From: Myxococcales bacterium
Lineage (GTDB): Bacteria > Myxococcota_A > Polyangia > Polyangiales > Houyiibacteriaceae
Direction of reading: 5' to 3'
Assembly: GCA_019637115.1 (NCBI GenBank)
Contig: JAHBWH010000064.1
Span: 1-39,854, forward strand
Length of the DNA: 39,854 nt
Positions 1 to 39,854 of the stretch are shown in pieces; the first letter of the stretch is position 1; each line of letters opens with the position of its first letter. A program made the position numbers and the translations under genes. The notes below the pieces were generated by a model. It was not told the DNA's origin. It saw nothing but the letters and a program-made list of their open reading frames with translations, and did not search any database.

Positions 1-50
1 ACACGGTCTCGGACACGGTCTCGGACACGGTCTCGGACACGGTCTCGGAC
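1..50. repeat. 12-bp tandem repeat at left window edge
   Basis: The 12-base unit ACACGGTCTCGG is repeated a little over four times and runs off the window edge. It shares the core GACACGGTC with the 18-bp array at the other end of the window. Read in the frame of the membrane-protein gene that starts at 163, the array has no stop and would encode Thr-Arg-Ser-Arg units. Confidence 0.95.
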
Positions 51-59
51 CGGAGATGC

Positions 60-121
60 AAGGGCAGGGGCACGGGCAAGGGCAGGGGCAGGGGGAAGCG
101 CACAGGCAGGGGCGGGGCGGG
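60..121. repeat. G-rich degenerate hexamer repeat
   Basis: This is a run of GGGCAG/GGGCAC/GGGCAA-like hexamers, rich in G on the plus strand, between the 12-bp array and the first gene. It is open in the frame of the gene at 163. It may be repeat-derived leader DNA; no promoter can be recognised in it. Confidence 0.75.
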
Positions 122-162
122 GCGCTCGGGACTTCGCGACCGGCTCGCACTATGCATCAGAC

Positions 163-513
163 GTGCTCGTCCTGCGCTTCGTGAAGATCCTCTCGGTGCT
201 CGTCCTCGTCGCCGGCTCGCTCGGCGCGACGCTGCCTGCGCCGATGCCGCTCACCACCAGGCGGCGCTTCGCGTTCGCGGTCGCGGCGCCCGGCTTGCTC
301 GCGAGCTGGACGAGCGGCTTCGTGCTCGCGTGGTCCGCTGGCCACCGGCTCTGGAGCACCTGGGTCGTCGTCTCGCTCCTGCTCTCGATCCTCTCCGTCC
401 AGGGCGTGCTCTACAGCGCCGGTCGTGAGGGCCGGGAGTCGTGGAAGGCCTTCGCCTTCACGATGCTCACGCTGGGAGGCGTCGTGGGCCTGATGGTCTG
501 GCGCCCGGCCTGA
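163..513 (+). CDS. Small four-helix membrane protein of unknown function
   Basis: A 116-residue protein with a GTG start and four predicted hydrophobic segments, at roughly residues 4-24, 36-57, 65-85 and 96-113. The short loops contain Arg. The even number of helices suggests both ends lie on the same side of the inner membrane. No catalytic motif is visible, and the family is not recognised. The start is uncertain: there is no clear Shine-Dalgarno sequence, and the frame is open upstream through the repeats to the window edge, so the protein could be longer. It converges with the FAD oxidase gene, whose 3' end lies 71 bases away. Confidence 0.6.
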   Translation: MLVLRFVKILSVLVLVAGSLGATLPAPMPLTTRRRFAFAVAAPGLLASWTSGFVLAWSAGHRLWSTWVVVSLLLSILSVQGVLYSAGREGRESWKAFAFTMLTLGGVVGLMVWRPA

Positions 514-15743: not shown

Positions 15744-17654
15744 TCAGGTGAGCGGGGGCGGCGCCGCTCGCGCCCGCGCGACGCGGCGCTGCGCCCAGAT
15801 CAGCGCGACGACCGCGACGACGGTGGCGGCGTTGGTCATCGGTCCGAAGTGCGCGGGGGAGACGACCGCGCCGGCGGCGCCTGCGAAGAGCGCGAGCGCC
15901 GGCAAGAGGAAGGGGCGACCGAGCCAGAGCGACCCGATCACGAACGCGAGCCCACCGAGCAGCATGTCTCCGCTCATCACGTTCGCGACACCAGGCTCGC
16001 GGACGAGGGCGAAGAGGCGATGGACGAGCGTCGTCGCCGCGAGCGCCAAGTAGAGGTCGACCAGGTGCCGCCCCTCCTCGGTGCGCGCGACGCGCCGCCG
16101 CAGCACGAGCAGGAGGAGCGCGGGCGGGAGCAGCGTGAAGCCCCAGACCCCGAGGAGCTCGAGGTGGGCGTCTTCCGGTGGGACGCTCGACCACGGCCGG
16201 ACGAAGGTCCGGTAGACCTGCACCGGCACGATGCCGAGCACGAGCAACGCGAAGAGGCCCTCGCGCTGACGCCGGCCCGCCTCGAGGTCTCGCTCTCGCT
16301 CGCGCCGGTCGCGCTCCGCCTCCTGCGCCTCGAGGCGCGCCACCGCGTCGGCGTGCCGAGGCTCGAGCACGTCGAGGGATCGGAGCTCCGCGAGGTGCCG
16401 GCGCGCGGAGGCGAGGTCACCGCGCGCGATGGCGTGCTCGACGAGCAGGCGCGGCAGCCCCTTCTGCATCGCGAGGGCGAGGGGGTTCTCGGGCCATTTG
16501 CGGAGCGACTCGTGGAGCGCGAAGCGGCATTGGATGGCGAGCTGATCGATCGCGTCGTCATCGGCGCCTTCACCCCGCTGGAGCGTCTCCTCGAGGGCCT
16601 CGAGCGACTCCGCCGCTCGGTCTGCCAGCTCGCTGGCGGAGCGGAGCTGCAGGTAGCGCCGAATCGCCTGCGCGAACTCGAGCGCCGACGCCGGGCGCTC
16701 GTCGCGCGCCGCGCTCGTCGCCCGGTTGGCGAGCGCCGCGAGCGCCGTCGGGACCGTGGCGTCGTACTCGACCGGCTTCGACTCCACGACCGAGAGGATC
16801 GCGCTCCACGCGCTCGAGGCGGCGTGGCGCGCCTTGCCCGTCAGGAGCTCGTGCAGGGTGCTCCCGAGCAAATAGACGTCGGTTCGGGCGTCGGGCTCTT
16901 CGCCGTGCACCATCTCGGGGGCCATGTAGGCCGGCGAGCCGACGACGCCGTGCTGCTCGAAGACCCCGTGCACCTCGCGGGAGTACGCGACGCCCCAGTC
17001 GATGAGCATCACCTCGCCGAAGGAGCCGATCATCACGTTCGCCGGCTTGACGTCGCGGTGGATGACGCCGCGAGTGTGGGCGAAGTGCAGCGCGTTGCAG
17101 ACCTGCACGAGGATCTCGAGGTGCGCGTCGAGCTCCTCGCCGCCGAAGAGCGGGTTGTCCTCGCGGACGGGATGGCGCGGATCCGCGAGCACCTCGCTCC
17201 ACGAGGCGCCCTCGATCCGCTTCATCACGAGCACGGGGTTGCCGTGCGCGTCCTCCCCGAGCTGGTGGACCGGCGGGATGTTTGGGTGCTCGAGCATTCC
17301 CGTGATGACGGCCTCGGCGACGAGGGCCGAGTGCAGCCGGCTGTCGGTGGCGGTCTTGACCGCGACGCCGCGGTGGAGCGAGGGCTGCCGCGCGAGGAAG
17401 ACGCGCCCCATGCCCCCTTCGCCGAGGGTCCGGACGTAGCGGAGGTCATCCGCGCGGGGGACCAGGACGACACCGGGCGCCTCGGCGTGCGTCTCGGGAG
17501 GCTGCGTCTCGGGCGGCGGCGCGACGATCGGCCCGGCGCGAAACGCGGGCCGGATCGTCTCGGAGGCGTGCAGCGTGTCCGGCAGGCTCAGGCGCTCGCG
17601 GAGCGCCTCGACCCCCGGCCGCGCGACCTCGCCCTCCACGCCCTGCTGCTTCAT
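15744..17654 (-). CDS. Membrane-anchored Ser/Thr protein kinase (PknB-like)
   Basis: A 636-residue Hanks-type kinase. The kinase domain spans about 70-340: Gly loop GEGGMGRV (78-85), ATP-site Lys100 in VAVK, catalytic loop HRDVKPANV (His199, Asp201), metal-binding DWG (219-221) replacing DFG, and GSPAYMAPE, so it should be active. A charged helical region (about 440-500) follows. About six membrane helices form the C-terminal 180 residues (for example GLFALLVLGIVPVQVY and LLPPALLLLVL). The kinase sits at the cytoplasmic N-terminus; the membrane part is not a PASTA sensor and may sense the membrane. The start at 17654 is an ATG giving a short N-terminal region rich in Pro/Glu. Its 5' region is divergent from the lipoprotein-cytochrome operon. 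Confidence 0.9.
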   Translation of the reverse strand: MKQQGVEGEVARPGVEALRERLSLPDTLHASETIRPAFRAGPIVAPPPETQPPETHAEAPGVVLVPRADDLRYVRTLGEGGMGRVFLARQPSLHRGVAVKTATDSRLHSALVAEAVITGMLEHPNIPPVHQLGEDAHGNPVLVMKRIEGASWSEVLADPRHPVREDNPLFGGEELDAHLEILVQVCNALHFAHTRGVIHRDVKPANVMIGSFGEVMLIDWGVAYSREVHGVFEQHGVVGSPAYMAPEMVHGEEPDARTDVYLLGSTLHELLTGKARHAASSAWSAILSVVESKPVEYDATVPTALAALANRATSAARDERPASALEFAQAIRRYLQLRSASELADRAAESLEALEETLQRGEGADDDAIDQLAIQCRFALHESLRKWPENPLALAMQKGLPRLLVEHAIARGDLASARRHLAELRSLDVLEPRHADAVARLEAQEAERDRRERERDLEAGRRQREGLFALLVLGIVPVQVYRTFVRPWSSVPPEDAHLELLGVWGFTLLPPALLLLVLRRRVARTEEGRHLVDLYLALAATTLVHRLFALVREPGVANVMSGDMLLGGLAFVIGSLWLGRPFLLPALALFAGAAGAVVSPAHFGPMTNAATVVAVVALIWAQRRVARARAAPPPLT

Positions 17655-18032
17655 ACGCGCGCGCAGTCTCCCAAGGGGCGCCAGCGCTGTCCACGGAGTC
17701 GACGGGTGAAATCCCCGACACCTGGCACCACGCCCCTGCCGCTCTGGCGGCGGGCGAGCCTCCGTGAGCAGAGGTGAGCGCTCGTACGCCGCCGCCGACG
17801 CGCCACGGCCTACGCTCCACGTGAGCTCGCTCGGTCGCCCCGGAAGCGGTCCTGCCGCGCGGCTCGCTTCGCGAGCGGCGTTCGCTGCGCTCGGCGTGGT
17901 GGTAGGCGCACGGACCGAAAGGAGCGCACGTTCATGGATTCGAAAGGAATTCTGGCTCACGACATGAGCTGCCCTCACCTCCGTGATGGCGGTCACGCTC
18001 CGCGTGACGTGAACGCGCGACGCTCCACGTCC
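17655..18032. promoter_or_regulatory. Divergent intergenic region with hairpins and an orphan ribosome-binding site
   Basis: This 378-bp gap separates the kinase gene (minus) from the lipoprotein-cytochrome operon (plus). It holds two short inverted repeats: 17862-17867/17871-17876 and 17992-17998/18002-18008 (GTCACGC with 3-nt spacer). At 17918-17924 there is a strong Shine-Dalgarno (AAAGGAG) nine bases before an ATG at 17934 that is in frame with the lipoprotein. Third-position GC from there to 18033 is only about 60%, far below the genes, so this stretch looks untranslated or recently recruited. No clear -35/-10 pair is seen. Confidence 0.5.
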
Positions 18033-19589
18033 ATGCGTACCTCATTCGCGCTCGCGCCCTTCGCTCTGCTCGTGGCCTGCTCCAGCGCGCCCTCCAGCGG
18101 CGCGCCTGCGGGCGAGAATCGTCCGCGCTCCGAGCCGATCGAGAGCGTGGGCCTCGCGCTCGCGCTGCCGGTCGCGACCGTCGCCGAGGCGAAGGCCACG
18201 CTCTCGCGGCTCTTCGGCGACGCCGCGCAGGCAGGGGACCGGCTCACGGCCCACCTGCTGCAGCCGGGGCTCCGCCTCAGCGCGCTCCCCGACGAGCGCA
18301 CGCCGGAGCAGGGCGTGATCGTGCTCGAGATGGACACGATGGAGGCCGAGCCGCGCGTCGTCCTGCAGGTGCCCGCGAGCTACGCCTACGGTCGGGTCTT
18401 CATCGACGCCGCCGAGGTCGCCTTCACCCGCGCCGAGGCCGTCGAGGCGTCACGTCCCGGCAGCATGGAGCCCTTCGTGCTCGAGTACCGGAGCTGGAGC
18501 CCGAACGGCGGCACCCTGACCGTCCGCGCGCGCTTCCAGGACGGGCAAAAGACGCTCGAGCTCGATACGACCACCCCCGAGACCTCCTTGCGACCCGACT
18601 CGCTGAACGCCCCCGCCTACGGCGGCGAGCCATGGGAGACCCTCGGCGGCACGGTCTGGTTCACCCTCAGCCGGGACGAGTTCGACTTCTTCTCGACGCG
18701 CGCATATGGGCTGTCGGCGGGCGCCGCGCAGAACTTCCGCGACTTCCGGCTGCTCCCTCATGACTGGCTCCGCCTGACGGTCACCCCCGAGCTCGCGGAA
18801 GAGCGCGTCGACGTGGCCTTCGAGGTGCTCACGGTGGACGGCCGCCGCGTGCCCTTCGCGCGCGCGCCCGCGTCGCTCGTCGCAGGCGAGCAGTTCCGCG
18901 CCAACGTCTTCCGGATGGTGGCCAACATGAACGCGGCCGAGCGCGCGGAGCCGGGGTCGAGCGCGTCTTGGCGTGTCCCCTTCTACTACGACGACCCCGA
19001 GGGCGGCGGCGTGGTGAGCGTCATCGCGCAAGGGCAGGGCGGCGTCTTCCGCATCGCCTATGCGGTCGAGGCGCCCCGCCGGCGACTGCGCGACGTGAGC
19101 TTCCTGCCCTACCAGGGCCACGTCGAGGTGCCCGAGACCCTCGAGCCACCCCGGCGGACCTGCGCGGACGTCGGCAGCACGGAGGCGCTCCGTGGCCGCT
19201 TCCGCGTGCGCTTCGACGCGTCGAGGACGGTGCGCGAGAGCGAGCGGCTCATGCATCCGCTGCGGGGAAACGTCTGGGGCGACGTCTTCCGCGCCGAGGA
19301 CGTCACGCTCGCTGGGCCGCGCGACGGCGCGGTCGCGCTCGCCAGCTTCGCCTTCGAGGACGTCGACGCGACCGTCGTCGGCGCCGGCATGGAGTACGTG
19401 GTCGACGCGGAGCTTCCGATCGGCGAGTACCAGATCCTCGGCTTCATGGACGTCGACGGCGACGCGGATGAGAGCCCGCGGCCGTCGCCAGGCGATCCCG
19501 TGACGCTGCCCATCGGCGGCTATCGGCTCGAGTGCGCCGAGCAGCCTGTCGTGGTCGAGTTCGCGCTCCTCCTCCCCGAGGGGTACTGA
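18033..19589 (+). CDS. Lipoprotein of unknown function, first gene of cytochrome operon
   Basis: A 518-residue predicted lipoprotein: MRTSFALAPFALLVACSS, with lipobox LVAC at about residue 16. ATG 18033 is chosen from the compact signal peptide and the jump in third-position GC; an upstream in-frame ATG at 17934 has the better ribosome-binding site. The mature protein is rich in beta strands, with one Cys pair (about 372 and 506) and no recognised catalytic motif. The C-terminus repeats Asp-rich turns (MDVDGDADESPR). It ends 15 bases before the beta-propeller/cytochrome gene, so it probably belongs to the same outer-membrane redox system, perhaps as a scaffold or substrate-binding partner. 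Family not recognised. Confidence 0.75.
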   Translation: MRTSFALAPFALLVACSSAPSSGAPAGENRPRSEPIESVGLALALPVATVAEAKATLSRLFGDAAQAGDRLTAHLLQPGLRLSALPDERTPEQGVIVLEMDTMEAEPRVVLQVPASYAYGRVFIDAAEVAFTRAEAVEASRPGSMEPFVLEYRSWSPNGGTLTVRARFQDGQKTLELDTTTPETSLRPDSLNAPAYGGEPWETLGGTVWFTLSRDEFDFFSTRAYGLSAGAAQNFRDFRLLPHDWLRLTVTPELAEERVDVAFEVLTVDGRRVPFARAPASLVAGEQFRANVFRMVANMNAAERAEPGSSASWRVPFYYDDPEGGGVVSVIAQGQGGVFRIAYAVEAPRRRLRDVSFLPYQGHVEVPETLEPPRRTCADVGSTEALRGRFRVRFDASRTVRESERLMHPLRGNVWGDVFRAEDVTLAGPRDGAVALASFAFEDVDATVVGAGMEYVVDAELPIGEYQILGFMDVDGDADESPRPSPGDPVTLPIGGYRLECAEQPVVVEFALLLPEGY

Positions 19590-19604
19590 CCGCGGGGGCT
19601 CGGC

Positions 19605-21497
19605 GTGAGGGGCGCGTCACGAACGATCGCGCGCGTGTGCGCTGGCGTCGCGCGGATCGGGCCTGTGTGTCTGGACGGTGTGTGTCTGGGCGTCGCGCCG
19701 ATCGCGTGCGTCGCACCGATCGCGCGCGTGTGCGCGGGCGTCGCGCTGATCGCGCTCGCCTGCCAGACGCCGGAGCGCCCGCGCGCCGCGAGCGCGAGCC
19801 TGATCCTCTACGACGACACGGTCTGGGTGGCGTCCGCGGACGACGACGCGCTGATCGGGCTCGACGCCGCGACCCTCGAGCCGCGCGCGCGCGTCGCGAT
19901 TGCGGGGGCTCCGACCCACCTCGCCCGGGCCGACGGCGCCTTCGTCGTCGGGCTCGCGCAGGAGAGCGAGGTCGCCTGGGTCTCGGAGACGCTCGAGGTG
20001 CGGCGGGTCCCCGTGCCGTGCGGGGGGACCGGGGCGGCGCTCGCGTTGCCCGACGGCGGCGCCCTCGTGGCCTGCCCGAACGACGATCGGCTCGTGCTCG
20101 TGCGAGACGGCGCGCTCGTCGCGACCTTCGACGCGCCGGGGCGCCCGACCGCGCTCGCGCTCGCGGCGGGACGCGTCTACGTCAGCGCGTCGCGCGCGGG
20201 GGCGGTCCGGTCGGCGCCGGCGGAGGCGCTCGACATCGACGCAGTCGTCGACGTCGAGCCGCGTGTCCTCACGACCGTCGCGTGGGAGACGCGCCGCATC
20301 GAGCAGACGCCAGGGTTCGCGGCCACCCAGGTCGACGCGCTCGCGCCGAGCCCCGAGGGCGTCGTCGCCTCGTACCAACGCGTCGACGTCGACAGCGATC
20401 GCGACCGCGATCCGTCGCGAGGCGGGTACGGGAGCCTCGTCGACGGCGCGCCGCGCCTCGAGCCGCGCCTGCTCGCCCCCTGCGGCGGGCGCTACGCGCG
20501 CTTCGATGGCGGTGAGCGGGTGGCGAGCGGCCCGAGCGCGCTCGCGTTCGACGCCGCGCGCGAGCGGCTCTGGATCGCGCACCGACAGACGGGGAACGTC
20601 GTGCTCCTCGCGTGCGCGCCCGGCCGGGGGCTCGCCGAGGCGAGCGACCGCGAGGCGCGCGTGCTCGGCGCGCTCGCGCTCGGGCGGGGGCTCGAGGGGC
20701 TCGCGCTGGCGCCTGATGGCAGCGTCTACGTCGACGTCGCCTTCGACCACGCCGTCGCGCACGTCGCGCTCGCGGACGGGCGGCTGGTCGTGCGCGCGCA
20801 GCGGACGCGACCGCTCGGCCCGACGCGCCTGTCCACGGCGGCGCTGCGTGGTCGCGCGCTCTTCTTCGACGCGCGGGACCCGCAGCTCACACCGAGCGGA
20901 GTCGTCACGTGCGGGAGCTGTCACCCCGCGGCCGGCGACGACGGCCTCTCGTGGTTCCTCCACACCGCGACCGTGGGGCCGAAGCTCCGCCGCACCCTGC
21001 CGGCGTGGTCGGCGCGGCCGGCGCTGGCGCCCTATCACCGGGACGGAGAATTCGCCGACGCGCGCGCGCTGACCCTCTCGACCCTGCGCGCGCTGCTCGA
21101 AGGGGACGGACTGCTCGTCGACCTCGACGCCATCGTGGCGTTCATGCAGGAGGCGCCCGCGCCGCCGCCGCGTCCCATCGACGATCCCGCCGCCGTGGCG
21201 CGCGGGGGCGAGCTCTTCGCGAGCCGCTGCGAGCGGTGCCACACCGCGGGCGGCCGCGGCAGCGACGGCGAGATGCACGCCGTCGTCCCGCTGAGCGCCG
21301 ACCCCCTGGGCGTGCTCGCCGCCGCGCTCACCCCCACCCTCGAGGCGATCCGCGCCCGCGCGCCCTACCTGCACGACGGACGCGCCGCGAGCCTGCGCGA
21401 CGTGCTGACGGTGCACGACCCGGAGGGCACCCACGGCGGCGGCGGGCTCGATCCTGCCGACCTCGCCGACCTCCTCACGTACCTGGAGTCTCTATGA
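19605..21497 (+). CDS. Beta-propeller / di-heme cytochrome c peroxidase-like lipoprotein
   Basis: A 630-residue exported c-type cytochrome with a GTG start. The N-terminal 53 residues are a repetitive, Cys-rich hydrophobic stretch ending in lipobox ALIALAC. Residues about 60-400 repeat beta-strand units of the YVTN/propeller kind (VWVASADDDALIGLD, VYVSAS, LWIAHRQTGNVVLL). The C-terminal part resembles MauG/CcpA di-heme peroxidases: GRALFFDARDPQLTPSGVV leads into heme motif CGSCH (436-440), and GGELFASRCERCH carries the second (542-546). APYLHDGRAASLRDVL matches the family's distal segment. Such enzymes reduce peroxide or oxidise protein substrates. It overlaps the RoxA-like gene by 4 nt. The real start could be one of several in-frame GTGs in the repeat. 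Confidence 0.85.
   Translation: MRGASRTIARVCAGVARIGPVCLDGVCLGVAPIACVAPIARVCAGVALIALACQTPERPRAASASLILYDDTVWVASADDDALIGLDAATLEPRARVAIAGAPTHLARADGAFVVGLAQESEVAWVSETLEVRRVPVPCGGTGAALALPDGGALVACPNDDRLVLVRDGALVATFDAPGRPTALALAAGRVYVSASRAGAVRSAPAEALDIDAVVDVEPRVLTTVAWETRRIEQTPGFAATQVDALAPSPEGVVASYQRVDVDSDRDRDPSRGGYGSLVDGAPRLEPRLLAPCGGRYARFDGGERVASGPSALAFDAARERLWIAHRQTGNVVLLACAPGRGLAEASDREARVLGALALGRGLEGLALAPDGSVYVDVAFDHAVAHVALADGRLVVRAQRTRPLGPTRLSTAALRGRALFFDARDPQLTPSGVVTCGSCHPAAGDDGLSWFLHTATVGPKLRRTLPAWSARPALAPYHRDGEFADARALTLSTLRALLEGDGLLVDLDAIVAFMQEAPAPPPRPIDDPAAVARGGELFASRCERCHTAGGRGSDGEMHAVVPLSADPLGVLAAALTPTLEAIRARAPYLHDGRAASLRDVLTVHDPEGTHGGGGLDPADLADLLTYLESL
19624..19752 (+). repeat. In-frame repeat inside signal peptide of the di-heme protein
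   Basis: Two 36-base copies (19624-19659 and 19717-19752) differ at two positions and lie 93 bases, i.e. 31 codons, apart. Between them lies a partial third copy (GGCGTCGCGCCGATCGCG). Encoded motifs are IARVCAGVARIG and IARVCAGVALIA. The array stays in frame and builds the signal peptide. Confidence 0.85.
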
Positions 21498-22924
21498 AAC
21501 GAAGCCCATGCGACCGATCCGTCTTCGCCGCCCTGCTCGCGTTCGCGCCGCCCGCGCTCGCGGCCCTCGCGCTCGCGGTGCTCTGCGCGTGCGGTGACGA
21601 CGACATGCCCGCGCATGACGCCGACCTGTCGGTGGATGCGGCGGCCGACGCGGAGGCGGACGCGGCGCGCGACGCGGGCCTGGTCCCGCTCGAACGCCCG
21701 GCGTTCCCCGCGGCGAACGCGGTCCCCGCCGCCGATCCTCGCTACCCGGGGATGATCCGCTTTCTCTGGGACACCTGGGGCGTCGAGGTCCTCGGGGAGT
21801 GGCCGCCCGCCGCGTTCATGATCGATCTGATGACGGAGGAGCCCGAAGTCTTCGGCGATCAGTTCTCCGCGTTCGGCTTCCTCCCCGATCCGAACGACGA
21901 CCTCCCGGTCGGCTTCAAGCGCGGCGTCGACGACGAGACTCGGGTCTATCAGACGTGCGCGGTCTGCCACGTGGGTAGGCTGCCCGACGGTCGGACCTGG
22001 CTCGGGCTGCCGAACCTCGAGCTCGACCTCGGGCGCTTTCGCGTCGAGGTGAACCGGCGCTGGGTCGCCGCCGGAAACGCGCCGCTCATCACTTCGCTGC
22101 AGGAGGAGAAGGCGAGCGCGCTCGGACCAGGGCGCTTCCACGCCGAGTCGGGCGACTACCCGCAGGTCGTCCCCGCGGACTTCCCACCCTACTTCGGGCT
22201 CGGGGAGCGGACGCGGCTGAACTACCTCGGCACGGGCGGTGACGTCCGGAGCGAGGCGTATATGGCGATCTTCTCGTTCGGCGCCGGCAACCCGAACCCG
22301 CGGGACGCGGTCGTGCCCTTGCCGAGCCGCGCGCGGGTCGACGAGTTCCTCACGTTCCTCGGCGCCATCGACGCGCCGGTCGGCCCCGCGCAGGATCCCG
22401 CACGGGTCGAGGCCGGGCGGGCGATCTTCGCGCGCGAGCGGTGCAACGACTGCCACCGGGTCGACGACCCGAGCGCGCTCCTGGTGGTGCCCTACGCGCC
22501 CGACGGCGTCGAGCGCCACCCCGGCGACGACGACGACTTCCCGCGCGGCGCCATCGCGACCTCGCGACTTCATCGCGTGCTCATCGACGGCGACGAGGAG
22601 GGCGGCGGAACCCCGAGCGACGAGGGGCGGGCCGACCTGATCAACTTCATCGTGCGCAACGGGCTGCGCGTCGGGCCCTCCGACGGCTACCGAGCCGCCG
22701 ACCTGCGCGGGGTCTGGGCGACCGCGCCGTATCTGCACAACGGCAGCGTGCCGACGCTCGAGGACCTCCTCCGCCCAGCTGCCGAGCGACCCGTGACCTT
22801 CGAGCGCGGAGGGTTCACCGTGGACACGACCATCCGTGGCAACGGCAACGAGGGACACGAGCTCGGCACCACGCTCGACGACGACGAGCGCGACGCGCTC
22901 GCCGCGTACCTGCGAACGCTCTGA
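21494..22924 (+). CDS. RoxA-like di-heme cytochrome c lipoprotein
   Basis: A 476-residue exported c-type cytochrome. The signal peptide ends in lipobox AVLCAC (about 32-33), followed by an Asp/Ala linker. Two heme-binding motifs are present: CAVCH (155-159) and CNDCH (317-321). The C-terminal signature GVWATAPYLHNGSVPTLEDL is typical of the cytochrome domain of rubber oxygenase RoxA and related di-heme enzymes. RoxA cleaves polyisoprene; relatives include oxidases of unknown substrate, so rubber cleavage should not be assumed. GGAG lies 5 bases before the ATG, which overlaps the previous stop (ATGA). Both cytochromes are probably lipid-anchored at the same surface and may pass electrons between them. 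Confidence 0.85.
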   Translation: MKRSPCDRSVFAALLAFAPPALAALALAVLCACGDDDMPAHDADLSVDAAADAEADAARDAGLVPLERPAFPAANAVPAADPRYPGMIRFLWDTWGVEVLGEWPPAAFMIDLMTEEPEVFGDQFSAFGFLPDPNDDLPVGFKRGVDDETRVYQTCAVCHVGRLPDGRTWLGLPNLELDLGRFRVEVNRRWVAAGNAPLITSLQEEKASALGPGRFHAESGDYPQVVPADFPPYFGLGERTRLNYLGTGGDVRSEAYMAIFSFGAGNPNPRDAVVPLPSRARVDEFLTFLGAIDAPVGPAQDPARVEAGRAIFARERCNDCHRVDDPSALLVVPYAPDGVERHPGDDDDFPRGAIATSRLHRVLIDGDEEGGGTPSDEGRADLINFIVRNGLRVGPSDGYRAADLRGVWATAPYLHNGSVPTLEDLLRPAAERPVTFERGGFTVDTTIRGNGNEGHELGTTLDDDERDALAAYLRTL

Positions 22925-24855: not shown

Positions 24856-24978
24856 ACGTCCCTCGTCCCACGTCCCTCGTCCCACGTCCCTCGTCCCTCG
24901 TCCCTCGTCCCTCGTCCCTCGTCCCTCGTCCCTCGTCCCTCGTCCCTCGTCCCTCGTCCCTCGTCCCTCGTCCCTCGT
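24856..24978. repeat. 7-bp minisatellite (TCCCTCG)
   Basis: The array starts with two 14-bp units (ACGTCCCTCGTCCC) and continues as about thirteen near-perfect 7-bp units. It begins seven bases after the stop of the lipoprotein remnant. The period is not a multiple of three, so it shifts frame with every unit and lies in true intergenic DNA. The remaining bases up to the HD-domain gene hold no gene. Confidence 0.95.
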
Positions 24979-36837: not shown

Positions 36838-38754
36838 TCAATAATGAAAGCCGAGGCGCAGGCGGAGGAGCTGCGCGGGGCGGGCGCCGAGCCCGAGGAC
36901 GGGGTTGTCGAAGCCAGCGAAGGGGAAGAGCACGGCGTACTCGAGCGAGGCGAGGAAGCCTTCGCGCGTCGCGTAGACGATCGTCGGGTCCACCTCGAGG
37001 CCGAGCGGACGCTCGCCGCCGGGTGTGCTCGTCGGCTGCACCGCGAAGCTCGCGATCGCTGCGACGTGCGCCTCGAGCCGCCCCGGGCCCAGCTCGGCGA
37101 GGCGTACGCGCGCGTGCGGGCGCACGTAGACGGCGTCGGTGACGGTGCCGATGATCTCGCGGAAGAGGATGCGGTCGATCCGGTAGTCCGAGTGGAAGCG
37201 GAAGTTGTCGACGCGGTTGTCGAACGGGGGGCGCGCCTGCGGTCCGTCGAGGTCGCCGGGGCGCGGCGCGGGCGCGTTCGGTCCGCGCGCGTTGCGTCCG
37301 AGCTGCGCGCCGAAGCCCGGCGAGGGATCGCCGCTCGCGAAGCCCGCGTCGAGACCGACGCTCCACGTGCTGCGCCCCTCGCCGTGGCCCGGACCGAAGT
37401 CGGTCTCGAGGGCGGCGCCGATCTGGTCGGACCTCAGCGGCTGCCGCAGCTCGACGCCCGGGACGAGCGAGGGCTGCTCGATGCGCGCGCGGAGATAGGC
37501 GGCCTCGAGCTCGATGCGACCGAAGGGGAGCGTGACCTTGAGCCAACCGTCGACGGCGGTGGCGCGGAAGCCGCGGTGCATCGACTGCGCGCGGTCGATC
37601 GCGACGGGGCTCGCGAGCGGGAGGTAGCTCGCCGGGACGTCGCCGTGCTGCCAGCGGTGCGAGACGTAGGCGCCGTATTCGACGCTCGTGCGACCGGCGC
37701 GGGCGCGCCGGCGGCGCGCGAGGTCGGTGTGGAAGTCGAGGACCGCGAAGGTGAAGGTGCGGACGTTGTCCCACGGATCGAGCGCGACGACGCGGCCCGG
37801 GGCGTTGCGCTGCGTGGTGGGACCGATCGACGTCCAGTCGAAGGCGACGGCCCAGACGTGCCCGAGGAAGGGCGAGACGAAGGCGACGCGATCCGCGGCG
37901 TCGCCGCTGTCGCAGTCCGCGCAGTCGCCGCCGTTGGCGAGCATGCCGAGGCCCCAATGGTTGCCCATACGGCCGACCGCCAGCATGCCGAAGGGCGTGA
38001 GGGCCTCGGCGTAGGCGCGGCGGATGACGAAGGGTTGGTCGGCGGGGCGCTGGCTGACCGCGACGCTCGGGACGCCCTCGGGCTGCGAGCCGAGCGAGAG
38101 GTTGTCGAGCGCGTCGAGGCGGACACGCACCGCCATGCCCGCGCGCGGGACGAGGAGCGCGACGTCGGTGCGCAGGCGCATGTCGGCGTGGCTGAGCCAC
38201 TGCGCGCTCGGGTCGGAGAGCGGCACCGGGAAGAGCGGATCGCCGCTCGGCGTCGGCCCTCGGTCGAGGTCGAGGTTGTAGAGGCCCTCGGCGCGCGCGC
38301 GGAGCGCGCCCGCGAAGACGACCTTGGTCTCGCGCGCGGCCTCGATGTCGAGCCCGATGTCGCGGAAGCCCTGGGCGGCGGCGGGGGACGCGGCGAGGAG
38401 GAGCAACGCGAGGAGCGCTCCGAAGGGGACCGGGTGTTGGTTCGGGGCTTGAGCGCGGTTCTCGTTGAGGACCGGGTGCGTGTTCGTGTGCGGCCTTTGC
38501 GGGTTGTTCGTGCGCGCGCACGTGACCGTGACCGTGTTCGTGTCTGTGTCCGTGTCCGTGTTCGTGTTCGTGTGCGGCCTTTGCGCGTTGTTCGCGCACG
38601 TGGACGTGGACGTGGACGTGGACGTGGACGTGGACGTGCACGTGGACGTGCACGTGGACGTCGTGGACGTGGACGTGGACGACGTGGACGTGGACGTGGA
38701 CGTGCACGTGGACGTGCACGTGGACGTGGACGTGGACTCGGGGGGGGTCACCAT
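36838..38754 (-). CDS. TIGR04551-like outer-membrane beta-barrel
   Basis: A predicted outer-membrane protein. After a signal segment (GALLALLLLAASPAAAQG) the mature part carries the hallmarks of the myxobacterial TIGR04551 family: GALRARAEGLYNLDLDRG, HADMRLRTDVALLV, VRLDALDNLSLGSQPEG, AYAEALTPFGMLAVGRMGNH and GGDCADCDSGDAADRVAFVS. It ends in aromatic FHY, as barrels do. The only in-frame start near is ATG 38754, which overlaps the preceding hydrolase stop by 7 nt; it puts about 110 residues of hexamer-encoded Thr/Ser repeats before the signal peptide, which is unusual. The true start may lie within the repeat at a non-ATG codon. Role: probably a porin or channel; inference. Confidence 0.8.
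   Translation of the reverse strand: MVTPPESTSTSTCTSTCTSTSTSTSSTSTSTTSTCTSTCTSTSTSTSTSTSTCANNAQRPHTNTNTDTDTDTNTVTVTCARTNNPQRPHTNTHPVLNENRAQAPNQHPVPFGALLALLLLAASPAAAQGFRDIGLDIEAARETKVVFAGALRARAEGLYNLDLDRGPTPSGDPLFPVPLSDPSAQWLSHADMRLRTDVALLVPRAGMAVRVRLDALDNLSLGSQPEGVPSVAVSQRPADQPFVIRRAYAEALTPFGMLAVGRMGNHWGLGMLANGGDCADCDSGDAADRVAFVSPFLGHVWAVAFDWTSIGPTTQRNAPGRVVALDPWDNVRTFTFAVLDFHTDLARRRRARAGRTSVEYGAYVSHRWQHGDVPASYLPLASPVAIDRAQSMHRGFRATAVDGWLKVTLPFGRIELEAAYLRARIEQPSLVPGVELRQPLRSDQIGAALETDFGPGHGEGRSTWSVGLDAGFASGDPSPGFGAQLGRNARGPNAPAPRPGDLDGPQARPPFDNRVDNFRFHSDYRIDRILFREIIGTVTDAVYVRPHARVRLAELGPGRLEAHVAAIASFAVQPTSTPGGERPLGLEVDPTIVYATREGFLASLEYAVLFPFAGFDNPVLGLGARPAQLLRLRLGFHY
38481..38740. repeat. In-frame hexamer array with an 84-bp higher-order duplication
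   Basis: GTGGAC/GTGCAC and GTGTCC/GTGTTC hexamers fill this stretch. A 30-base block (38481-38510) recurs at 38565-38594 with one mismatch, 84 bases apart (14 hexamers). All steps are multiples of six, so the frame of the barrel gene stays open and encodes Thr-Ser, Thr-Asn, Thr-Asp dipeptides. On the other strand it reads Val-Asp/Val-His. Confidence 0.95.
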
Positions 38755-39740
38755 GGCGCGCCTCCCTCGGTCGTCGCGGGCTCGGGCGGGCTCGGCGTGG
38801 GCTCGAGGGGCGCGGGGGCCTCTGGGGTGGCGGGGGCCGGGGGCTCGAGGAAGGCGACGAGGTCCCGGGTCGAGGGGGTGCGCGCCTCGATCATCGGGAA
38901 GTGCCCGCATTGCGGGTAGACGCGGAGCTCGGCGTTCGGCAGCTCGTTGACGAGGCGCTCGCCGTAGGTGAGCAGCGTGACGGCGTCCTCGCGGCCCCAG
39001 AGCAGGAGGGTCGGCTGCGCGATCTCGCGGTAGCGCGCCGCCTGCGCCTCGTATCGCATCGCGCGCACGGCGGCGAGCGCGGCGGCCGCGGTGCCAGGGC
39101 GCCGGACCTGCTCTTCGACCGTGTCGATCAGCGCCTGCGGGATGAGCTCGGCGTCGTGGAAGGCGAGGGCGATCTTGTCCTCGCTCCGCTCGGTGTAGAA
39201 GACGCCGAAGATCACCTCCCCGAGGCCACGGGCGCGCGCCCAGTGGAAGCTGGTCGGGAGCTGCTCGGGATAGACCCACGCGTCGTAGAGCGCGATGCGC
39301 TCGACGCGCTCGGGGGCCTCGAGGGCCATCGCGAGCGCGACGCTCGAGCCATAGCTGTGCGCGACGACGGCGGCACGCTCGAGCCCCCGGGCCTCCATCA
39401 GCGCGAGCACGAGGCGCGCCTGCTCGTCGGGGCCATAGCCGTGCTCGTCGCTCGGCGGGGGCCGATCGGTGTGGCCGAAGCCCTTGAGATCGAGCGAGAG
39501 GACGCGGAAGCGCTCGCGCAGCGCGGGTCGGACGCCCGCCCAGACGCCGAGGCTGCTCGCGAAGCCGTGAACCAGCACGACCGCGGGCGCGTCCTCGGGT
39601 CCTTCGTCGACGTAGTGGACGCGGGTGCCACGGATCGTCGCGAAGGCGCCGTCCTCGGGTGCGTCGGGGAGGGCGCCGGAGTGGTAAGAGACGCAGCCGG
39701 TCGCGAGCGTGAGGATCGCGGCGATCGCGCGGCGGTCCAC
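38748..39740 (-). CDS. Alpha/beta-hydrolase lipoprotein
   Basis: A 330-residue hydrolase. GTG 39740 is chosen because it opens a compact lipoprotein signal (DRRAIAAILTLATGCVS). The frame remains open upstream through five 18-bp repeats to the window edge, encoding Ser-Asp-Ser-Ala-Thr-Val units. The fold shows VVLVHGFASSLGVW (oxyanion hole), AVVAHSYGSSVA with Ser in a HSYG elbow, LLWGREDAVT with the Asp, and PQCGHFPMIE with the His. It resembles lipase/esterase and epoxide-hydrolase-like enzymes; substrate unknown. A Pro/Glu-rich tail follows. Stop codon overlaps the barrel gene start. First gene of the run within the window. Confidence 0.85.
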   Translation of the reverse strand: MDRRAIAAILTLATGCVSYHSGALPDAPEDGAFATIRGTRVHYVDEGPEDAPAVVLVHGFASSLGVWAGVRPALRERFRVLSLDLKGFGHTDRPPPSDEHGYGPDEQARLVLALMEARGLERAAVVAHSYGSSVALAMALEAPERVERIALYDAWVYPEQLPTSFHWARARGLGEVIFGVFYTERSEDKIALAFHDAELIPQALIDTVEEQVRRPGTAAAALAAVRAMRYEAQAARYREIAQPTLLLWGREDAVTLLTYGERLVNELPNAELRVYPQCGHFPMIEARTPSTRDLVAFLEPPAPATPEAPAPLEPTPSPPEPATTEGGAPW

Positions 39741-39765
39741 GGACCGGCGGGGGCGTGGTCGTGTG

Positions 39766-39854
39766 GTCGCGGAGTCGGACACGGTCGCGGAGTCGGACGC
39801 GGTCGCGGAGTCGGACACGGTCGCGGAGTCGGACACGGTCGCGGAGTCGGACAC
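39766..39854. repeat. 18-bp tandem repeat at right window edge
   Basis: Five units of GTCGCGGAGTCGGACACG (one has GACGCG) run to the window end. They lie directly before the hydrolase start, are open in its frame and would encode Ser-Asp-Ser-Ala-Thr-Val units. The core GACACGGTC is shared with the 12-bp array at the left edge. Confidence 0.95.

What the first reader, a model, noticed from the sequence alone, without database searches (positions are those of the whole stretch)
18033..22924. Operon of a novel lipoprotein, a propeller/di-heme peroxidase and a RoxA-like cytochrome
Three lipid-anchored exported proteins with four c-type hemes in all are encoded with a 15-nt gap and a 4-nt overlap. 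RoxA-type domains cleave polymers oxidatively, MauG/CcpA-types use peroxide or modify proteins. Together they could form an outer-membrane oxidative enzyme complex with the unknown lipoprotein as scaffold.
Basis: partly seen in the sequence, partly recalled or inferred. Interest (0 to 1): 0.55.

Follow-up and report, generated by a model that had tools for sequence, protein, structure and literature searches.

The report
Lipoprotein partnered with two diheme enzymes
A myxobacterium-type genome carries a small, repeatedly conserved gene set in which an unstudied membrane-anchored protein is paired with heme-containing oxidizing enzymes, suggesting an uncharacterized oxidation system on the cell envelope whose target is not yet known.

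Summary
Three same-strand genes encode lipobox proteins: A (18033-19589, no heme motif), B (19605-21497, propeller plus two CxxCH) and C (21494-22924, two CxxCH); gap 15 nt, overlap 4 nt. The linkage is real. I found 18 full-length A loci including the window: B is next to A in 16 of 17 testable loci, C in 12 of 15. Over 377 genomes of the phylum, full-length A occurs in 13, close B in 14 (13 shared) and close C in 11 (10 with A). One genome splits the set into an A-B and an A-C locus, so A is the hub and C is optional. A is an undescribed family: a duplicated domain plus a C-terminal beta-sandwich domain that elsewhere is fused to c-heme/copper monooxygenases. B's heme half is nearest in sequence to hydrazine synthase gamma. 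C is of the RoxA superfamily but is no RoxA. Best reading: a lipid-anchored diheme oxidation module with A as the obligate non-heme partner. Whether A presents a substrate or is itself the modified protein is unresolved. Outer-membrane location and polymer cleavage are untested. New variant of a known kind; interest about 0.5.

The parts
18033..19589 (+). Gene A: 518-aa lipoprotein of an undescribed family (D1 + D2 + CTD), no heme motif
18078..18080 (+). A lipobox cysteine (C16, LVAC)
18138..18608 (+). A domain D1 (residues 36-192), first copy of the duplicated domain
   Evidence: hhalign D1 vs D2 prob 97.7, E 1.6e-12; nearly the same strand/helix order in the AF2 model
18630..19088 (+). A domain D2 (residues 200-352), second copy, more conserved than D1
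18696..18773 (+). Loop in D2 (residues 222-247, RAYG..QNF.DF.L.PHxWLR) with W245, the only invariant Trp in 18 sequences; not the most conserved stretch of D2
   Evidence: lower model confidence at 221-240
19161..19577 (+). A C-terminal domain (residues 377-515), beta-sandwich in the model, also found fused to c-heme/copper monooxygenases
19605..21497 (+). Gene B: lipoprotein with N-terminal propeller and C-terminal diheme domain
19761..19763 (+). B lipobox cysteine (C53, ALAC)
20910..20924 (+). B heme motif 1, CGSCH
21228..21242 (+). B heme motif 2, CERCH
21494..22924 (+). Gene C: lipoprotein, RoxA-like diheme protein
21590..21592 (+). C lipobox cysteine (C33)
21956..21970 (+). C heme motif 1, CAVCH
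22442..22456 (+). C heme motif 2, CNDCH
22727..22753 (+). C MauG/Rox motif PYLHNGSVP (residues 412-420)
22856..22858 (+). C H455, aligned with RoxA H641, the distal ligand of RoxA's second heme

Best explanation
A, B and C form a lipid-anchored oxidation module of the cell envelope. A is the obligate non-heme partner. B, and where present C, are diheme oxidants, each with an N-terminal heme predicted to be open for O2, peroxide or a similar ligand and a C-terminal bis-His heme that relays electrons. I think it most likely that A docks the diheme enzyme and presents or positions its substrate, with the D2 loop (residues 222-247) as the likely working surface, while the CTD acts as a shared docking domain for c-type cytochromes or for the envelope. 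The target is probably a hydrophobic or unsaturated molecule when C is present. Shown: three lipobox proteins, four heme motifs, the A-B(-C) linkage, the duplication in A, the CTD sharing, and the sequence kinship with RoxA and hydrazine synthase gamma. Inferred: heme ligation, oxidant, physical contact, location, substrate.
For: Of 18 full-length A loci, B is adjacent in 16 of 17 testable and C in 12 of 15 testable. In 377 genomes of the phylum: full-length A in 13, close B (E<1e-80; score gap 296 to 168 bits) in 14, shared 13; close C (E<1e-100; gap 424 to 86 bits) in 11, of which 10 have A (Fisher p 3e-23 and 2e-16, kinship not corrected). In one genome (G401) one A stands with C only (L032) and another with B only (L037). 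No other gene recurs beside A at most loci (16 loci compared). Lipoboxes are conserved in all three families. A's CTD is fused to [one-heme cyt c]-[copper monooxygenase] proteins in 6 loci. C keeps P[YF]LHNGSVP and the H641-equivalent in 12 of 12. B's best diheme PDB relative is hydrazine synthase gamma, 3.9e-16, with its DmHGRTS His aligned to B H610.
Against: No experiment. No evident catalytic or metal-binding residues were seen in A, which fits a partner but does not say for what. The trio is not fixed: C is absent at 3 of 15 testable loci and convergent in two. G200 has B and C without A found (short contig, 88% complete). The D2 loop is hardly more conserved than the rest of D2 (0.70 against 0.68; the best windows, 0.75, lie elsewhere), and the divergent A proteins of L071/L072 keep PHxW but little else of the loop. 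Asp follows the lipobox Cys in 9 of 18 A proteins, so a common membrane is not established. C is much shorter than RoxA (162 against 199 residues between the heme histidines) and its F317 position aligns with small residues.
Confidence: 0.42

Rival explanations
1. A is the protein substrate. B (and C) work like MauG on methylamine dehydrogenase or MbnH on MbnP: long-range oxidation of an aromatic side chain of A, with W245 (or Y225) in the D2 loop as the likely target, so that the finished product is a modified A.
For: A is found with B alone or with C alone as well as with both. A has no heme motif and no evident catalytic site. W245 is the only invariant Trp in 18 sequences. Both enzymes hit MauG/MbnH models weakly. 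The chemistry of MauG and MbnH is recalled.
Against: A hits no MbnP-type model. B and C fall far below the MauG and MbnH cut-offs (B 27.4 of 443.85; C 27.0 of 362.85). Their second hemes look bis-His, not the His/Tyr recalled for MauG. An invariant Trp may be structural, Y225 is not invariant, and the loop does not stand out in conservation.
Confidence: 0.25
2. B is a lipid-anchored peroxide or nitrogen-oxide reductase like hydrazine synthase gamma or a bacterial cytochrome c peroxidase; A and C serve it as docking and electron-transfer proteins, and the module is for detoxification or respiration.
For: B's diheme half is closest to hydrazine synthase gamma and three of seven B proteins hit the hydrazine synthase beta-gamma fusion model; Pfam Cytochrom_C above cut-off.
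Against: Peroxidases of this type are not known to me to need a dedicated non-heme lipoprotein (recalled); C is of the oxygenase (RoxA) branch; the CCP_MauG Pfam score is below its cut-off (23.3 of 25.6).
Confidence: 0.15
3. C is a rubber- or lipid-cleaving dioxygenase of the RoxA/FadCcp kind and the operon degrades an extracellular polymer or fatty acid.
For: C: PF21419 at 65.2 bits, PYLHNGSVP motif and H641-equivalent; RoxA homologues exist in myxobacteria and PA2077 oxygenates oleate.
Against: RoxA model 48.9 of 1000 bits; size and heme spacing differ; F317 equivalent not found; C is optional while A-B is the core; no other gene recurs beside it at most loci.
Confidence: 0.12

Closest known systems
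RoxA/RoxB rubber oxygenases and FadCcps (PA2077/PA2078)
   Same: C shares two CxxCH, the P[YF]xHNGSVP motif and an aligned distal His of the second heme
   Different: C is 476 aa with closer heme motifs, lipid-anchored, encoded beside A, below every Rox model cut-off, F317 not identified
Hydrazine synthase beta/gamma (and beta-gamma fusions)
   Same: B joins a propeller to a diheme domain with the HGRTS-type His; closest diheme relative in the PDB by sequence
   Different: Scores far below the gamma model (12.8 of 625 bits for the window B); lipid-anchored; its partner A has no heme motif; an alpha subunit was not searched for
MauG-preMADH and MbnH-MbnP pairs (recalled)
   Same: A diheme enzyme encoded beside a dedicated non-heme exported partner
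   Different: A hits no MbnP-type model; B and C are far below MauG/MbnH cut-offs; modification of A unknown
PHM/DBH-type copper monooxygenases with an N-terminal cytochrome c
   Same: Share A's C-terminal domain (46% identity to L073) in a lipobox protein with a c-heme motif
   Different: A's D1-D2 is unrelated by profile comparison (prob below 1%); no Cu2_monooxygenase hit in A

Membership tests
RoxA/RoxB rubber oxygenases | Two CxxCH motifs | tested here: met
   (window C); in relatives
RoxA/RoxB rubber oxygenases | MauG motif P(Y/F)(F/L/M)HNGSVP | tested here: met
   C 412-420; 12 of 12 C proteins have P[YF]LHNGSVP; motif from PMC6311187 passages
RoxA/RoxB rubber oxygenases | Second heme bis-His (RoxA H641) | tested here: met
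   Aligned His only: H455, 12 of 12; the ligation itself was not tested
RoxA/RoxB rubber oxygenases | F317 equivalent near the open heme | tested here: inconclusive
   Position aligns with A/V/G/I-type residues, a Tyr follows in most; alignment uncertain there
RoxA/RoxB rubber oxygenases | Score over the curated cut-off | tested here: not met
   C: RoxA 48.9 of 1000, RoxB 54.3 of 900, RoxC 61.5 of 900 bits
Di-heme cytochrome c peroxidase NF040606 | Score over 150 bits | tested here: not met
   Window C 118.7 bits; all 7 C members scanned match the model, best E 4e-34 is the window's
MauG (TIGR03791) | Score over the curated cut-off | tested here: not met
   B 27.4 of 443.85 bits
MbnH (TIGR04039) with MbnP partner | Diheme enzyme over the MbnH cut-off | tested here: not met
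   B 19.4, C 27.0 of 362.85 bits
MbnH (TIGR04039) with MbnP partner | Partner is an MbnP-family protein | tested here: not met
   A has one NCBIfam hit at E<=1, ChpT at 0.057; that NCBIfam holds an MbnP model is recalled
MauG/MbnH-type modification | Oxidised aromatic residue in the partner | not testable with these tools
   Needs mass spectrometry
Hydrazine synthase gamma | Score over the curated cut-off | tested here: not met
   Window B 12.8 of 625 bits; best of 7 members E 3.6e-12
Hydrazine synthase beta-gamma | Propeller joined to a diheme domain | tested here: met
   Profile A2 matches PDB propellers and HZS gamma; NF052342 in 3 of 7 and YVTN/PQQ repeat models in 4 of 7 B. Pfam gave no propeller hit for the window B
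Copper type II monooxygenase (PHM-like) | Cu2_monooxygenase domains in A | tested here: not met
   hhalign A D1-D2 vs the PHM part, prob 0.1; no Pfam hit in A
Known structures for A | Fold match of D1/D2 | tested here: inconclusive
   Foldseek reports 0 matches at E<=0.001; VIA rows mostly on the CTD (Z up to 6.6, rmsd 4.0, 108 aligned)

The most novel reading that the evidence does not exclude
A is itself a redox protein with a protein-derived cofactor: B (or C) oxidises the invariant Trp245 (or Tyr225) of the D2 loop, giving a further, independent lineage of MauG-type protein maturation. A's duplicated domain then replaces the copper monooxygenase core that elsewhere sits on the same C-terminal domain.
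Probability: 0.13. Interest if true: 0.78.

Novelty: new variant of a known kind. Interest (0 to 1): 0.5.

Why it matters
It gives a defined gene partner, in genomes of several families and apparently more than one phylum, for two branches of the diheme bCcP/MauG/RoxA superfamily. It also defines a new protein family (A) and a shared accessory domain (CTD) that links diheme enzymes with cytochrome-fused copper monooxygenases. The natural A-B-only and A-C-only loci make the role of A directly testable with two-gene constructs. Four literature searches (12 of 25, 12 of 27, 14 of 14 and 10 of 47 papers listed) showed no title or abstract opening that describes such a set.

Tried and rejected
A as a divergent copper monooxygenase: rejected by profile comparison. 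A as MbnP: no model hit. A fourth conserved gene: one search compared ORFs of 100 aa or more from 16 loci and printed the 14 largest clusters; besides A, B and C these are clusters that overlap A, B or C (taken as shadow frames), a Ser/Thr-kinase-like cluster in 5 of 16 loci, and clusters in 2-3 loci. The kinase-like ORF lies next to A in the window (divergent) and, about 30% identical, in L030 (same direction, ends just before A), elsewhere further off. I do not count it as a partner. First AF2 model (7 sequences) was poor (pLDDT 56) and its fold matches meaningless. The second (18 sequences) was good (87.9), but D1/D2 still found no fold; Foldseek hits to GFP, PCNA and thioesterases are weak and I attach no meaning to them. 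VIA rows for the CTD (Bacteroides surface proteins, a pilotin, a CnaB domain, Z about 5 to 6.6) may show only a common sandwich. RoxA as a control family: nothing over the cut-off in 57 or 377 genomes or the 14 control genomes, so this says little about absence; one RoxA-related gene below the cut-off (L130, 284 bits) was used for alignment. Promoter and terminator scan: 0 promoters, 2 terminator-like sites against 1.0 expected. Papers: passages seen in PMC12607021, PMC6311187, PMC12758564 and PMC4496055; PMC6405878 held none of the terms I asked for; the others only as search listings. MbnH/MbnP and MauG chemistry is recalled.

The profile searches of 377 genomes scored only the best 3 or 4 first-look candidates of each genome, so weaker extra copies may be missed. 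In one search, 61 of 377 genomes matched, 13 with full-length A; the rest match the C-terminal domain only, but for one weak match to residues 105-159 (G119). Small CTD lipoproteins beside copper-monooxygenase-like genes (L078, L080, L082, L083, L085, L086) rest on a GGHMH motif; Pfam found Cu2_monoox_C in 2 of 6, both below cut-off. L084 fuses the CTD to a protein with such motifs and no Pfam hit; L079 showed no such neighbour.
Full report
Observation. Three genes lie head to tail on the plus strand: A 18033-19589, B 19605-21497 (GTG) and C 21494-22924, with a 15-nt gap and a 4-nt overlap. B and C each have two CxxCH motifs, A none. By a loose pattern all three have lipoboxes, and so do 17 of 18 A, 15 of 15 B and 12 of 12 C proteins examined, the window's included. 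Upstream lies a Ser/Thr kinase gene in the opposite direction; downstream, on the other strand, a gene with an AgmX/PglI-type C-terminal domain.

Families. A has no significant hit in Pfam, NCBIfam or the PDB, and 13 A proteins scanned against Pfam, the window's included, gave only chance-level hits. B matches Cytochrom_C above cut-off and CCP_MauG just below it; Pfam shows no propeller in the window B. The profile of seven B proteins finds propellers, hydrazine synthase gamma (3.9e-16) and bacterial peroxidases in the PDB, and 4 of 7 B hit propeller-repeat models. C matches RoxA-like_Cyt-c (65.2 bits) and Cytochrom_C above cut-off and is closest to RoxA 4b2n in the PDB (2.5e-13).

Linkage. 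A was found in 7 of 57 genomes of the first set, counting the window's own; all six relatives have B and C beside A. A scan of genome contigs gave 11 loci, five of them the same as before. A profile search of 377 phylum genomes matched 61, with full-length A in 13. Joined, there are 18 distinct full-length A loci. B is adjacent in 16 of 17 testable loci: absent in L032, and not testable in L071, where A ends at the contig edge; the partial B of L036 is counted as present. C is adjacent in 12 of 15: absent in L033, L035 and L037, not testable in L036, L071 and L072. In L012 and L013 C is convergent to A-B; in the other ten it is co-directional.

Phyletic pattern. In the same 377 genomes, B at E<1e-80 occurs in 14 (the next score drops from 296 to 168 bits) and C at E<1e-100 in 11 (424 to 86 bits). 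All 13 genomes with full-length A have such a B; in G206 the two sit on different contigs, A at a contig edge. Ten of the 11 C genomes have A; the exception, G200, has B and C on a 6.6-kb contig where B runs close to the edge. Weaker relatives of B are common: 112 of 377 genomes match at E<=1e-30, so only the close group follows A. Fisher p values are 3e-23 for A-B and 2e-16 for A-C, without correction for kinship. A-B and A-C distances correlate (Spearman 0.63 and 0.72, reached by 0 and 2 of 2000 permutations), which shared descent alone could also give.

A as hub. One genome (G401) holds A with C but no B nearby (L032) and a second A with B but no C nearby (L037). C is not found at E<=1e-10 in the genomes of L033 and L036, which are labelled as gammaproteobacterial and actinobacterial bins (bins may be contaminated). 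No further gene recurs beside A at most loci (16 loci compared); a kinase-like ORF neighbours A in two of them, in different orientations.

Anatomy of A. Two consecutive domains, residues 36-192 and 200-352, are copies of each other (hhalign prob 97.7, E 1.6e-12) and have nearly the same strand-helix order in a confident AF2 model (pLDDT 87.9, pTM 0.78). D2 is more conserved than D1 (0.68 against 0.52 mean majority identity). D2 has a loop (222-247) that holds W245, the only invariant Trp over 18 sequences, in a PHxW motif (the His is Tyr in one). The loop as a whole is hardly above the D2 mean (0.70), and the best-conserved windows start near 258-261 and 308-316. The two most divergent members, L071 and L072, keep PHxW but not the rest of the loop. 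The D1-D2 pair found no convincing fold match.

The C-terminal domain. Residues 377-515 occur in many other proteins of the phylum. In six loci the domain ends a protein with one CxxCH and a copper type II monooxygenase: Pfam Cu2_monoox_C is above cut-off in 5 of 5 scanned, and the sixth (L074) was read by motif only. All six keep HH, QMHY, HxH and EMC, which I recall as copper-ligand positions of PHM. The domain is 46% identical between A and the L073 fusion protein. In six more loci a small CTD lipoprotein lies beside a gene with a PHM-like motif, which is weaker evidence.

Enzyme features. C has P[YF]LHNGSVP and a His at RoxA H641 in 12 of 12 sequences. RoxA's F317 position aligns with small residues, with a Tyr next to it in most, so oxygenase chemistry of the RoxA kind is possible but not shown. 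In RoxA the N-terminal heme binds O2 and the C-terminal heme is bis-His (PMC6311187, passages); related FadCcps oxygenate oleate (PMC4496055, passages). B H610 aligns with the HGRTS His of hydrazine synthase gamma, whose gamma-II heme is bis-His (PMC12607021, passages); that this His is the ligand is my inference. Fused beta-gamma relatives of hydrazine synthase exist outside anammox bacteria (PMC12758564, passages).

Mechanism. I commit to a lipid-anchored diheme oxidation module with A as the obligate non-heme partner (0.42). The main rival, that A is the modified protein (0.25), is kept apart because one mass-spectrometry experiment separates them. A reductase role for B (0.15) and rubber or lipid cleavage by C (0.12) are less likely.

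Novelty. The enzyme superfamilies are known kinds; A, its duplicated domain, its CTD and the A-B(-C) association were not met in the titles and abstract openings listed, which showed only part of the matching papers for three of the four searches. I therefore rate it a new variant of a known kind.

Noticed in passing
window 19625-19755: B's signal region holds an imperfect 30-bp tandem repeat (4.3 copies) that makes a long Cys-rich leader not seen in the six aligned relatives; several in-frame GTG starts make B's true start uncertain.
   Followed up: partly
window 24857-24978: Near-perfect 7-bp tandem repeat (CGTCCCT, 17.4 copies, 96% matches).
   Followed up: no
L073, L074, L075, L076, L077, L081: Lipobox proteins that fuse a one-heme cytochrome c, a PHM-like copper monooxygenase and A's C-terminal domain; possibly an undescribed enzyme type.
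   Followed up: partly
L032 and L037: One genome carries A-C and A-B as separate loci.
   Followed up: yes
G000:C157:36798-38630 (L022, L015): The window's genome has another protein, in a 1255-aa frame, with weak likeness to B along most of its length and to C's motif region.
   Followed up: no
window 15744-17996 (minus) and L030 7058-9859 (plus): A Ser/Thr-kinase-like ORF lies next to A in the window (divergent) and in L030 (same direction), about 30% identical.
   Followed up: partly
window 1-510 and 36841-39852: Frames that begin with short Arg-rich amino-acid repeats near both window ends.
   Followed up: no
L036: A contig binned as Aquihabitans carries A with a lipobox and a B whose likely starts lead into a hydrophobic stretch without a lipobox.
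   Followed up: partly
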